A DNA stretch of 64,000 bases from Hypomesus transpacificus (lineage: Eukaryota; Chordata; Actinopteri; Osmeriformes; Osmeridae). Below are positions 23,387 to 64,000 of this stretch, piece after piece; position 1 is the first letter of the stretch, and every line of letters starts with the position of its first letter. A program made the translations under genes and the position numbers. The notes beneath the pieces were generated by a model. That model saw only the letters and a program-made list of their open reading frames with translations. It was not told the origin of the DNA and did not search any database. The DNA lies in contig NC_061067.1 of NCBI RefSeq assembly GCF_021917145.1, positions 1,662,596 through 1,726,595 of the forward strand. The letters are read 5' to 3'.

Positions 23387-26300
23387 TGGTGAGGATTCAC
23401 ACGGAGAGAGAAGCGTATCCCACGGACACGGTCGTCACGTTCCTGGCCCTGCCGTCGGAGGGCGGTCCTCGGGAGTTCCTGTGGAACTTTGGAGATTCTC
23501 GCCCCATCAGAACGACCTCGCCTACCGTCTCCAGGATATACCGCACACCTGGCAGGTAACATCCACACACGTCACACAGCAGTACACCTGGCAGGTAACA
23601 TCCACACACGTCACACAGCAGTACACCTGGCAGGTAACATCTACACACGTCACACAGCAGTACACCTGGCAGGTAACATCCACACACGTCACACAGCAGT
23701 ACACCTGGCAGGTAACATCCACACACGTCACACAGCAAGGGGTGTGAAGAAGCTGGAGAAGGTGTAAATAATATCAATGTATGAAACAAGCAAGATTTCA
23801 ACCAAATAATCAATACAACCATTTCTGTTATATTAAAGCACTTACTTCTTAATCATACTGAAGGTAAAGCCATTGACAGTACATACACAGCACTTCGTAC
23901 AGTAATCACACTGAAGATTAAGACTGCACTGTTGTAGCATTACTGCATTTGCGAGTGTTTGTTCTCGTCTTCAATCAACACACCTATCATGGCTCATCTC
24001 CATCATGGCCCTTTCCTCCCTTACCTGTGCGCAGGTACATCGTGGTGGTGACGGCAAGCGACGGTGTGACCTCCGTGACCTCTGACCCTCTCCACCTGGT
24101 GGTCCAGACAGCCGTGCGTCCCAGCAGGCTGGAGCACCTGCCCTCGGTGGTCCAGAACCACAGCCTGGTCTTCAGCTGCAGGACCCGCACCGGCACCAAC
24201 ATCACCTACAGCTGGAGCTTCGGGGACGGAGAGAGCAGGACGGGACAGAGCACGGAACAGCACACCTTCTACAGGTGAGAGGATAGAGCACGGAACAGCA
24301 CACCTTCTACAGGTGAGAGGATAGAGCACGGAACAGCACACCTTCTACAGGTGAGAGGGTAGAACAAGTCGAACAACACACCTATACCCCACCCCTACAC
24401 CTAAAGTGACAGCTAAGTGAAACGTTAAGCTGTGCATATTTAAATGTTAAGACATTCAAACTGAAAGAGCTCCGTGTGTTGCGTGTCCGTGCAGGACGGG
24501 AGTGTTTAGGGTGGAGGTGACCATGTCCAACCTTGTCAGCTCCGCCTCCCTGCGGGGGGAGGTGTTCGTGGTGGTCCGGCCCTGCCAACCCCCGCCTGTG
24601 AAGAACATGGGTCCTCTCAACACACAGGTGAGACTCTACCTGAGGGATGGAGTAGAGAGGGACACAGAGGGGATTATATATATTCTCCTATCCCCTCTCC
24701 TCTCCCCCTCCATCTCTCCCTCTATCCTCTCCTCTCCTCTCCGCCGCCCAGGTGAGGAGGGATCAGAAGTTGCGTCTGAGCGTGACGTTGGAGACGGAGG
24801 TGCAGTGTGACGTGTCCCGGGGTCTGGGGTACCACTGGACGGTGCGTGACCCCGGGGGGCTGGTGGTCCCCCTGCCAGGCGTGGACCCTCTCCGGCAGAG
24901 CCTGACCCTGCCCACACACACCCTGCTGTATGGCACCTACAACGCCGTAGCCAGGGTGAGAGACAGCATTACCAGTCACAGTTCATCAGCTTCATACATG
25001 GGGATGGATACAGCTTAGTGGTTTGAGCATTTGACTGCAGGTCAAGAGGTTGGAGGGTCAAATTCCCCAAACAAAATTAGATTTGTATAGGATTCGTTCC
25101 TTGCTCTGGTCAAGTTGTAAAACAGACACAATAAAATAGATTTCCAATATCATTCCTTGTTTTCTGTCGGGTTTCAGTTGTAGTAACAACACAAAACCCT
25201 CTTATGTTCTGTGCGTCCTCCTGTGAGCCTGGCAGGTGAGTGTTGTGGGCAGCGTGGTGTACAGTAACTACAGCGTGCGTGTGGAGGTGCTGCCCTCCCC
25301 CCCAGTGGCCTTCATCCTGGGGGGCACCAACGTCTTTCTGGCCCGTGGGAACGTCAGTGCCTTGGCCCTGGACGGACACCGCTCCTACGACCCTGACCAG
25401 CCTGCTGGTGCTCTCAGGTACAGGGCCTGCTGGCCAGTTTCTGCTATGTTGCTGGTCATCTTTACTAAAAGCTTCTGCAAGATATCATTTTGTAATATTA
25501 ATATTCTAATATCGTAATATTGTTGATGTCTCAAACATAAACCCCTTCCATTGTCACTTAACCCCGCCTTCTCAGCTACAACTGGAGCTGTAAGCCAATC
25601 AGCTCCATCGACAGCTCCTGTTTTGACCAACCGGTGGACACCTCCTTGCCCGTGCTGCTGTTGCCGGGCGGAGCTTTGAAGCAAAGCTTCGACCAGTTCC
25701 GGTTCACCCTCACGGTTAGCAGCGGGGAACGCTCTGCCTCCTCGGACACCTTCGTCACGGTAACACCACACCTGTCCAGGTGAGGGTGATGCAGAGAAGA
25801 ATGTTCCTGAACACATCCTGAACCCCTTCGTGTCTTATTGTTATTGTGTCTTATCTTAGATTTCTTTTTTTTTTTACATTTCAAAACTTTGTTTTCGAAA
25901 CTTGTTTTTCAAACACAGTGAAAGGAGAGGAGAGAGGAGGAGAGAACAGAAAAGCCTAAAACAGTAAAGCAGAGTACAGTAGAGTTTTGTAGAGTCCTCA
26001 TCAAGTACTCATCAATGATTCTTTTTCTATTTCTTTCAACCTTTAGAAACGTTTTTTCCAAAACCCCCAAAAAACCATTGAAATCCTTTTTTCAACCTTT
26101 CGAAACATTTTTCAACAAAAAATATTTGCACAAAGTTGAAGGAGTTTCTTTCTAATGAAATGCAATATGAGTACTAGTAAATGCGTAAAAATATCAGTAG
26201 AAGGGCAATATTAAGTTTCAATATAGTTTAGGACCATTTTGTCACAGGATTTTCCTCAGAGAATTCCATCTAAACAGCAGATCGACTGTATGGGATCCTG

Positions 26301-62600: not shown

Positions 62601-64000
62601 ATGGACCACTAAAGGAGGAGTGTGGAGGCTGTGATGGTGAGACACATGGACCACTAAAGGAGGAGTGTGGAGGCTGTGATGGTGAGACACATGGACCACT
62701 AAAGGAGGAGTGTGGAGGCTGTGATGGTGACGCCAGGCTGGCTCACCTCAGACGGCAGGGCGAACGTGCAGGACTGCTGGAACGGCCACGATCCAGAACT
62801 CAACACCTGGATACTGAAGTCCACTGGTAACACACACACATCTATGATCAATACGATGACTCTGCTGAACCTCCATTATTATCTTGTTGCTATTGGTTGT
62901 GGCACAGTAGCTTGATTGGAAGGCTTTTCTTTCTGGGTGAAATGCTGGCGAGCTAACTAGCAGCAAGGCAATACAATGTGGATATTTTATTTTCAGTAGA
63001 GATGCAGTGATTTTCCTCTACATGTTAATGAGTGAACACGTTAACTGATAATCGGTACATGCACAGATATACTGAACTGTGGTGAGGCTCCAGCCATGCG
63101 CTTGTTAACAGCAAATCCCTTCAGCCAATCAGAATCAGTATAAACACCCATCATTACAGTCCAGGGGTTCAGAGTTAGTCAGATGTGTGTGTGTGATTCT
63201 TACAGTCCAGGGGTTCAGAGTTAGTCAGATGTGTGTGTGTGGTTCTTACAGTCCAGAGGTTCAGAGTTGGTCAGATGTGTGTGTGTGTGGTTCTTACAGT
63301 CCAGGGGTTCAGAGTTGGTCAGGTGTATGTGTGTGGTTCTTACAGTCCAGGGGTTCAGAGTTGGTCAGGTGTATGTGTGTGGTTCTTACAGTCCAGGGGT
63401 TCAGAGTTGGTCAGGTGTATGTGTGTGGTTCTTACAGTCCAGGGGTTCAGAGTTGGTCAGGTGTATGTGTGTGGTTCTTACAGTCCAGGGGTTCAGAGTT
63501 GGTCAGGTGTATGTGTGTGGTTCTTACAGTCCAGGGGTTCAGAGTTGGTCAGGTGTATGTGTGTGGTTCTTACAGTCCAGGGGTTCAGAGTTGGTCAGAT
63601 GTGTGTGTGTGTGGTTCTTACAGTCCAGAGGTTCAGAGTTGGTCTTACAGTCCAGTTGGTCAGTATGTGTGTGTGTTCTTACAGTCCAGGGGTTCAGAGT
63701 TGGTCAGGTGTATGTGTGTGGTTCTTACAGTCCAGGGGTTCAGAGTTGGTCAGATGTGTGTGTGTGGTTCTTACAGTCCAGAGGTTCAGAGTTGGTCAGA
63801 TGTATGTGTGTGGTTCTTACAGTCCAGGGGTTCAGAGTTGGTCAGATGTGTGTGTGTGTGGTTCTTACAGTCCAGGGGTTCAGAGTTGGTCAGATGTGTG
63901 TGTGTGGTTCTTACAGTCCAGGGGTTCAGAGTTGGTCAGATGTGTGTGTGTGGTTCTTACAGTCCAGGGGTTCAGAGTTGGTCAGATGTGTGTGTGTGTG
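59625..64000 (-). CDS. cul1: Cullin-1, C-terminal third (gene continues past the window)
   Basis: Minus-strand exons in transcript order: 62747-62823, 62229-62347, 61591-61696, 61397-61444, 60974-61056, 60762-60867, 60497-60610, 59625-59705, all phase-consistent (about 244 residues; full CUL1 is 776). The preceding exon ends '…LTNSEPLD' inside the array at 63150-64000. Visible: cullin-homology sequence '[20 protein letters not shown]', '[20 protein letters not shown]', and the winged-helix end with the neddylation site ('[18 protein letters not shown]', Lys in RIMK) and the conserved terminus '[13 protein letters not shown]'. CUL1 scaffolds SCF ubiquitin ligases, binding RBX1 through this region. 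A ZBED-type transposon fossil lies in the last intron, and four introns hold tandem repeats. Confidence 0.96.
59793..60484 (-). mobile_element. Degenerate hAT element, ZBED type
   Basis: Left end 'TAGTGCTGTCAAACGAGAAC' and right end, reverse-complemented, 'TATTGCTGTCAGTTAAACAC' form imperfect inverted repeats. Sub-terminal 'GATTAATCGC'-type words are shared with an abundant fish hAT family. It fills most of the last cul1 intron. I could not find a clean 8-bp target duplication, so the exact ends are uncertain. Confidence 0.7.
59878..60138 (-). pseudogene. BED zinc finger fragment of a ZBED1-like transposase
   Basis: An 86-aa frame with '[26 protein letters not shown]', a BED finger (CxxC, then H with spacing H-x-x-x-H-like), followed by unrelated sequence. 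Only the DNA-binding start of the transposase is left; the catalytic part is absent. Confidence 0.7.
61063..61348. repeat. (GACA)n-containing minisatellite in a cul1 intron
   Basis: Repeats of 'GACAGACAGGTCTTCAGCAT' with variable GACA number, ~11 units. On the coding strand it forms a pyrimidine-rich run directly upstream of the acceptor of exon 60974-61056. Confidence 0.9.
61752..61990. mobile_element. Interspersed repeat of the 'AAAGTACT' type
   Basis: Contains 'GATGAAAAAAGTACTCATCC', 'TCAAGTAGAAGTACAAACAC' and 'TTTAGTAAAAGTAGCC'. Such AGTA-rich sequences recur as non-autonomous elements in many fish genomes. Ends not defined. Confidence 0.45.
62041..62226. repeat. GAGA-rich composite repeat
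   Basis: Units of about 30-40 bases made of GAGAGAGCAGGAGAC… in the cul1 intron just beyond the donor of exon 62229-62347. Confidence 0.85.
62367..62735 (-). repeat. 45-bp minisatellite, 8 copies, in a cul1 intron
   Basis: Unit on + strand contains 'GTGAGACACATGGACCACTA'. On the transcribed strand each unit contains 'CTCCACACTCCTCCTTTAG', a pyrimidine tract ending in AG that resembles a 3' splice site. It fills the intron between exons 62747-62823 and 62229-62347. Confidence 0.95.
63150..64000 (-). repeat. Donor-spanning ~46-bp minisatellite, ~19 copies (cul1)
   Basis: On the minus strand each unit is (CA)n-CAT followed by the codons for LTNSEPLD, one more T, and the donor GTAAGAACC. This is the exon end that precedes 62747-62823 in all cullin-1 genes. 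About 19 copies (one partial near 63645) are in the window and the array runs off its end, so the exon to which it belongs is outside. Confidence 0.95.

What the first reader, a model, noticed from the sequence alone, without database searches (positions are those of the whole stretch)
23545..64000. Recurrent minisatellites that amplify exon-intron junctions
At least five arrays in three neighbouring genes (pkd1l1 at 23545, 24251 and 34060; ezh2 at 55357; cul1 at 63150) repeat a unit made of exon end + 5' splice site + intron start. Units are 38, 39, 40, 42 and ~46 bp, a narrow range. Several more arrays begin at or within ~20 bases of a donor without including exon sequence (30541, 32365, 40523, 45428). 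Independent genes in one 41-kb interval showing this suggests a lineage-wide process that creates tandem duplications at splice donors. Each event yields extra donors and could be raw material for alternative splicing or new introns: tandem duplication of an AGGT-containing segment is a proposed route of intron gain. Most individual donor strings here are intact, which may reflect recent amplification rather than selection.
Basis: partly seen in the sequence, partly recalled or inferred. Interest (0 to 1): 0.85.

Follow-up and report, generated by a model that had tools for sequence, protein, structure and literature searches.

The report
Minisatellites overlapping fish splice donor sites
In several genes of this fish, short DNA repeats have grown across the point where an exon ends, copying the splice signal many times; it looks like ordinary repeat growth that selection tolerates there but not at exon starts, similar to the 'mirages' described in amphioxus.

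Summary
The arrays are real. All five named arrays repeat exon end + 5' splice site + intron start, and a sixth was missed: pkd1l1 27904-28924, 41 intact CACAG|GTAA copies. The claimed donor-targeted process is not supported. Under uniform placement of 24 arrays, 8.3 should cover a donor and 8.3 an acceptor; 5 and 0 do. In 60.7 kb picked by myosin exon matches, blind to repeats (131 exons, 35 arrays), one covers a donor and none an acceptor, against 7.1 and 7.1 expected. Allowing only tolerated places, 7 of 45 arrays cover a donor against 6.0 expected (P 0.39). Window complex arrays alone give 5 of 10 against 1.8 (P 0.02), but the window was picked for this pattern. Genome-wide, a donor octamer recurs in tandem within the range of five other orders of its letters. 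Best reading: minisatellites arise widely; selection removes those crossing acceptors or breaking frames, while donor-crossing arrays survive because the exon-proximal donor stays intact. Closest known: amphioxus 'mirage' minisatellites. A teleost case with this donor/acceptor asymmetry is a new member of that kind.

The parts
23545..23737 (+). pkd1l1: 39-bp array x4.9 across the donor after 23555; 5 intact CAG|GTAACA copies
24243..24383 (+). pkd1l1: 38-bp array x3.7 across the donor after 24274; 3 intact CAG|GTGAGA copies, then a degenerate copy without a donor (by eye)
34060..34149 (+). pkd1l1: 41-bp array x2.2 across the donor after 34070; 2 intact GAG|GTATCT copies
55356..55567 (+). ezh2 SET domain exon: 42-bp array x5.0 across the donor after 55380; 5 GAG|GTACC copies; reading frame stays open through all copies
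63154..63998 (-). cul1: 46-bp array x17.9 repeating the exon end CCCCTGGACT|GTAAG (18 copies of CTGGACTGTAAG); continues to the window's end, beyond which bases read N
32368..33950 (+). pkd1l1: wholly intronic 30-bp array x52, starting 10 bases after a donor and ending 36 before an acceptor
45424..45902 (+). PDIA4-like gene: intronic 39-bp array x12.3, starting 13 bases after a donor
61073..61353 (-). cul1: intronic 24-bp array x11.4 ending 17 bases before an acceptor and running into its pyrimidine tract (counter-example to donor-only placement)
62366..62730 (-). cul1: intronic 45-bp array x8.1 filling an intron, 16 bases from its donor and 19 from its acceptor

Best explanation
These are ordinary minisatellites of a repeat-rich teleost genome, seen after selection. 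Short tandem duplications arise widely in genes and grow by slippage or unequal exchange (growth mechanism inferred). Those that cross a 3' splice site or break a reading frame are lost. Those inside introns, in-frame ones inside exons, and those that cross a 5' splice site survive. A donor-crossing duplication is tolerated because the copy next to the exon body is unchanged and remains the splice site; later copies become intron. Use of the first donor and neutrality of later copies are inferred, not shown.
For: Uniform placement of the window's 24 arrays predicts 8.3 covering a donor and 8.3 an acceptor; observed 5 and 0. Independent sample: 35 arrays, 131 exons, expected 7.07 and 7.14, observed 1 and 0. 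With only tolerated places allowed, 7 of 45 arrays cover a donor against 5.99 expected, P 0.39; 7 of 46 against 6.2, P 0.43, if the 31171 array is counted as intronic. The four arrays taken as wholly coding have units of 24, 39, 36 and 24 bp, all multiples of three. The exonic part of the five donor arrays with a visible exon is always less than one unit. Wholly intronic arrays lie nearer the donor in 22 of 38, P 0.42. Tandem-triplet matches per single occurrence: donor octamer 3430/58 = 59, third of six, inside the range of five other orders of its letters, 16 to 130.
Against: Within the window, complex-unit arrays cover donors more often than the selection-aware null (5 of 10, expected 1.6-2.0, P 0.012-0.03; 5 of 11, expected 1.8-2.2, P 0.02-0.05); all arrays 6 of 21, expected 2.9-3.6, P 0.06-0.13. 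The window also has more complex coding arrays than uniform placement gives (4 against 0.62, P 0.001; 3 against 0.57, P 0.014), while the myosin sample has none against 4.13, so tolerance differs between genes. One coding array, 31171, breaks the frame by one base in a G run as assembled. The independent sample is one gene family, perhaps under stronger constraint. The donor octamer exceeds its own mirror image ninefold in tandem triplets (3430 to 378) with only 2.5 times the single occurrences (58 to 23). No expression data show which donor is used.
Confidence: 0.7

Rival explanations
1. A lineage-specific mutational process preferentially duplicates DNA at 5' splice sites, for example through transcription-linked breaks or RNA-DNA hybrids at exon ends.
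For: Window complex arrays: 5 of 10 cover a donor, expected about 1.8. Seven donors and no acceptors hit overall. Donor octamer triplets 3430 against 378 for the mirrored motif.
Against: Independent sample 1 donor-covering array against 2.79 expected; pooled 7 against 5.99. Another order of the same letters recurs in tandem more often than the donor octamer (TGAGRCAG 5587). Wholly intronic arrays show no donor bias (22 of 38).
Confidence: 0.15
2. The extra donors are used: the arrays are kept as alternative 5' splice sites, for instance giving EZH2 isoforms with repeats in the SET domain.
For: The EZH2 extension is open through all five copies, adding 14 residues per copy; the counted copies keep the donor string.
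Against: In pkd1l1 23545, 24243 and 34060 any downstream donor brings an in-frame stop. High identity between copies is expected from recent amplification alone. An insert would fall in a conserved catalytic domain.
Confidence: 0.06
3. Copy numbers or arrays are partly assembly artefacts.
For: Long near-identical arrays are hard to assemble; read support cannot be seen here. A one-base difference in a G run breaks the frame of the 31171 coding array.
Against: Copies carry point variants inside arrays; a donor-covering array recurs in an unlinked gene.
Confidence: 0.06

Closest known systems
'Mirage' minisatellites of amphioxus (Adh3, globin, troponin C, PGBD5)
   Same: Minisatellite-like tandem duplications spanning an exon-intron boundary, many copies carrying splice signals, reported not to disturb normal splicing (PMC3087553, passages; PMC3902484, passage).
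   Different: Amphioxus mirages hit both 5' and 3' boundaries and have units of 10-160 bp; here only 5' boundaries were seen hit, in a teleost, with units of 21-46 bp. Polymorphism, somatic instability and splicing were reported there and are not tested here.
Internal tandem repeats at exon-intron boundaries of human segmentally duplicated genes (PMC2812944)
   Same: Minisatellites, on average 30-bp units repeated 4 times, some at exon-intron boundaries (passages).
   Different: There, transcripts show repeats kept in or spliced out of the exon and proposed new introns; here the repeats extend an existing intron.
Intron gain by tandem duplication of an AGGT-containing exonic segment (reviewed in PMC3443670)
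   Same: Tandem duplication of a segment with an AG|GT string (passages).
   Different: That route needs a duplicated exon segment and yields a new intron; here the duplicated site is the donor of an existing intron and no new intron is seen.
Intronic minisatellites of teleost genes (Sparus aurata GH and MSTN-2, PMC3045353)
   Same: Length-variable intronic minisatellites in a fish (passages).
   Different: The passages seen do not describe exon ends inside the unit.

Membership tests
Mirage minisatellites (exon-intron boundary minisatellites) | Tandem unit spans an exon-intron boundary | tested here: met
   Six arrays in the window and one in L040; for cul1 the exon body itself lies in bases that read N
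Mirage minisatellites (exon-intron boundary minisatellites) | Copies carry splice signals | tested here: met
   Intact donor strings: 5, 3, 41, 2 and 5 copies in five window arrays, 18 in cul1, 7 in L040
Mirage minisatellites (exon-intron boundary minisatellites) | Length instability between alleles or somatic cells | not testable with these tools
   One assembly only, no reads
Mirage minisatellites (exon-intron boundary minisatellites) | Normal splicing despite the copies | not testable with these tools
   No RNA data
Intron gain by tandem duplication | Duplicated segment was exonic and a new intron lies between the copies | tested here: not met
   Copies extend existing introns; protein homology continues across the same junctions
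   Window 5 of 24, expected 8.3; myosin sample 1 of 35, expected 7.1; selection-aware pooled 7 of 45, expected 6.0; but window complex arrays 5 of 10, expected 1.8
   7 to 0 in all (P 0.016); 2 to 0 without the five arrays that caused the window to be flagged; equally explained by loss at acceptors

The most novel reading that the evidence does not exclude
In this teleost, exon ends are preferred birthplaces of minisatellites, and some of the resulting donor ladders are spliced in use, for example an EZH2 whose SET domain gains 14 residues per extra donor chosen, so that repeat length tunes an isoform series.
Probability: 0.07. Interest if true: 0.8.

Novelty: new member of a known kind. Interest (0 to 1): 0.4.

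Why it matters
It gives counts, in a vertebrate, for tandem repeat growth across 5' splice sites (7 arrays) and none across 3' splice sites among the 208 exons examined (77, 131). That asymmetry bears on how the spliceosome picks among equal donors, offers natural ladders of 2 to 41 near-identical donors for testing donor choice, and warns that an apparent concentration at donors can be survivorship rather than mutation bias.

Tried and rejected
Home-made gene finder: the first settings over-predicted heavily on both strands, so I kept a hand-curated list. The random 200 kb from C1 and C2 was too gene-poor and too weakly annotated for a donor/acceptor count: arrays overlapped unverified predicted exon ends of both kinds, and I made no count from it; it served for motif frequencies and array lists. 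Local octamer clustering in 261 kb was underpowered: donor 1 cluster of 42 sites, all orders of its letters 588 of 45434. I first took the mirrored-motif contrast (3430 to 378) for strong genome-wide donor enrichment; two further patterns with their mirrors showed that it is not special. The acceptor-string control was asked for repeatedly and never answered; AGGCTRAG was asked once and not answered. The DNA match of the 23545 array to C14 is a separate 34-bp array filling the 5.3 kb fetched, not a dispersed copy. The phage search was pointless for a fish window. A C. elegans link between minisatellites and alternative splicing (PMC4039745, passages) concerns intronic motifs, not duplicated splice sites. 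'Introner-like or transposed repeat family' was rejected: the units differ between arrays and each begins with its own gene's exon end. The 5000 N after the window begin exactly at its edge, so I do not read them as an assembly gap.

Limits: exon boundaries are predictions. In the window, 77 exons were kept by hand. Three pkd1l1 exons (30482, 37371, 41238) had no protein hit and rest on frame and splice signals; the PDIA4-like exons rest on frame and motifs. Three acceptors and two donors (three exons) were re-set by eye; after that 77 of 77 are AG/GT. The array 31171-31332 is taken as coding because homology to PKD1L1 continues on both sides, but one G run in it breaks the frame by one base as assembled; counting it as intronic leaves the conclusions unchanged. 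In the myosin set 157 predicted exons became 131 after dropping dubious ones, two ends were re-set by hand, and three of 262 boundaries are non-canonical, one of them (L032 1202) probably my error. The 18 myosin stretches were picked by me from the 181 matches, avoiding most clustered copies. The intron test leaves out 23165 (no mapped exon upstream) and one search leaves out cul1 63154 and arrays outside the mapped exons. The pooled test gives each window array the mean probability; one search uses each array's own. Pattern counts are overlapping matches, so long arrays weigh more, and single occurrences come from a non-random 325 kb. The 15 window distances were typed from earlier output.
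Full report
What is there. The window is from a teleost: the best-scoring PKD1L1 relatives listed are fish (Coregonus 51% identity, Oncorhynchus 47%, Centroberyx 50%, over 48-71% of the query), and it lies in a 437-Mb assembly at C8:1662596-1726595. From about 23 kb on it holds pkd1l1 (+), a PDIA4-like gene (+, name recalled), ezh2 (+) and cul1 (-). I mapped 77 exons with a small gene finder and by hand. 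Most are backed by fish PKD1L1 proteins or by EZH2 and CUL1 from solved structures; 74 had AG/GT ends as first set and all 77 after three were re-set by eye.

The arrays. Tandem Repeats Finder and the sequence confirm the five arrays named: 39 bp at 23545, 38 bp at 24243, 41 bp at 34060, 42 bp at 55356 and 46 bp at 63154 (minus strand). Each unit holds the last bases of the exon, the donor and the first bases of the intron. A sixth, at 27904-28924, repeats CACAG|GTAACAC with 41 intact CACAGGTAA copies. In the five arrays whose exon body is visible the exonic part is 11, 32, 12, 11 and 25 bases, less than one unit, so the protein is unchanged when the first donor is used. For cul1 the exon body lies in bases that read N from 64001 to 69000, but the repeated exon end translates to the LTNSEPLD of human CUL1.

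What downstream donors would do. Reading on past the first donor gives an immediate in-frame stop in 23545 and 24243 and a stop before the second donor in 34060. In 27904 the read-through frame meets a stop at the second copy. In ezh2 the frame stays open through all five copies, adding [14 protein letters not shown] each time. So several of the extra donors would make spoiled messages if used; the ezh2 ones would not be caught that way.

Is it more than chance? Random placement of the window's 24 arrays over the mapped genes gives 8.3 that cover a donor and 8.3 that cover an acceptor; observed 5 and 0. Introns are short (median 177 bases), so many random arrays would cross a junction. The striking number is the zero at acceptors, not the five at donors. 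A fairer null asks where a first duplicated unit could lie and be tolerated (inside an intron or across a donor): complex-unit arrays then cover donors in 5 of 10 cases against 1.6-2.0 expected (P 0.012-0.03), all arrays in 6 of 21 against 2.9-3.6 (P 0.06-0.13). That hint comes from a window picked for the pattern, so I sought an independent sample.

Independent sample. I took 18 stretches (60.7 kb, L030-L047) around Myosin_head exon matches, chosen without sight of repeats. They hold 131 kept exons and 35 arrays. One array covers a donor: L040 619-776, 22 bp x7.2, exon end ACCAG|GTAAGACCC, in an unlinked gene. None covers an acceptor and none lies wholly in an exon. Uniform expectation is 7.07, 7.14 and 4.13; the tolerated-place expectation for donors is 2.79 of 24. 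Pooled with the window: 7 of 45 arrays against 5.99 expected, P 0.39; complex-unit arrays alone 6 of 23 against 3.61, P 0.14. Wholly intronic arrays lie nearer the donor in 22 of 38 cases (P 0.42), and in the window several abut acceptors (39926, 51427, 52458, 61073, 62366).

A check on one array. The 39-bp array 31171-31332 was counted as coding. Read straight through, the exon has stops: one G run in the array is a base longer than in its neighbours (by eye), yet the sequence after it, [17 protein letters not shown] in the shifted frame (translated by eye), matches the salmonid protein ([17 protein letters not shown]). So it is coding by homology, with a one-base break that may be a sequencing error or real. 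If it is counted as intronic instead, the results are 5 and 0 of 24 against 8.4 and 8.4, complex arrays 5 of 11 against 1.8-2.2 (P 0.02-0.05), pooled 7 of 46 against 6.2 (P 0.43). The conclusion does not change. Complex coding arrays are more numerous in the window than uniform placement gives (4 against 0.62; 3 against 0.57) and absent in the myosin sample (0 coding arrays of any kind against 4.13); genes differ in what they tolerate, and my model does not explain the excess.

Genome-wide motif test. Three copies of CAGGTRAG with gaps of 7-37 bases occur 3430 times, against 378 for the mirrored motif. Other orders of the same letters give 1449 (CAGTGRAG; mirror 905) and 5587 (TGAGRCAG; mirror 930). 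Divided by single occurrences in 325 kb (58, 23, 37, 20, 43, 15) this is 59 for the donor octamer and 16, 39, 45, 130 and 62 for the others. Distinct arrays counted by eye in the first 3.78 Mb of C1, where all three listings are complete: donor 6, CAGTGRAG 1, TGAGRCAG 13 (one of them the same array as a donor one). The donor string holds no special place. An acceptor-string count was asked for several times and never answered.

Interpretation. The simplest account is a high background of minisatellite birth plus selection. Acceptor-crossing arrays are absent in both samples. The arrays taken as coding have units of 24, 39, 36 and 24 bp. Donor-crossing arrays survive because the exon-side copy is intact. 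Why acceptors are intolerant is inference from general knowledge: the first AG after the branch point is usually taken, so upstream copies would add sequence to the exon. That the first donor is the one used, and that copies grow by slippage or unequal exchange, is also inferred. A donor-targeted process is not excluded but is not needed.

What is known. Amphioxus genes have 'mirages', minisatellite-like duplications of exon-intron boundaries reported not to disturb splicing and to vary in length (PMC3087553, passages; PMC3902484, passage; the original Adh3 paper is not held). Human genes in segmental duplications have minisatellites at exon-intron boundaries (PMC2812944, passages). Tandem duplication of exonic AGGT is a reviewed route of intron gain (PMC3443670, passages; also PMC2891723, passages), which this is not. 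Among the titles and abstract openings listed by eight paper searches I saw no description of donor-covering arrays as a general feature of a teleost genome; that library lacks most subscription journals.

Noticed in passing
31171-31332, 37924-38038, 53407-53587: Coding minisatellites in pkd1l1 (39 and 36 bp) and ezh2 (24 bp, acidic [12 protein letters not shown] repeats in a normally conserved chromatin enzyme); the 39-bp one breaks the frame by one base in a G run as assembled.
   Followed up: partly
32368-33950: A 30-bp array of 52 copies fills almost the whole of a pkd1l1 intron.
   Followed up: partly
61073-61353: A 24-bp array runs into the pyrimidine tract of a cul1 acceptor and may itself supply that tract.
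   Followed up: no
window end (64001-69000 in window coordinates, L029): The next 5000 bases of the contig read N, starting exactly at the window's edge; probably withheld rather than an assembly gap, so the cul1 array's full length is unknown.
   Followed up: no
L002-L008 (G000:C14:9851116-9856430): A 34-bp tandem array filling all 5.3 kb fetched, with a higher-order period of 169.
   Followed up: partly
L025 (G000:C2:3064610-3067005): A 104-bp array of about 23 copies, 2.4 kb long.
   Followed up: no
5612-8083: A long open frame of 824 codons that looks like a SKI/SKIDA1-type gene (name recalled, not searched).
   Followed up: no
24359-24405: At the end of the 24243 array lies a decayed further copy whose donor is lost, so older copies seem to degrade (by eye).
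   Followed up: no
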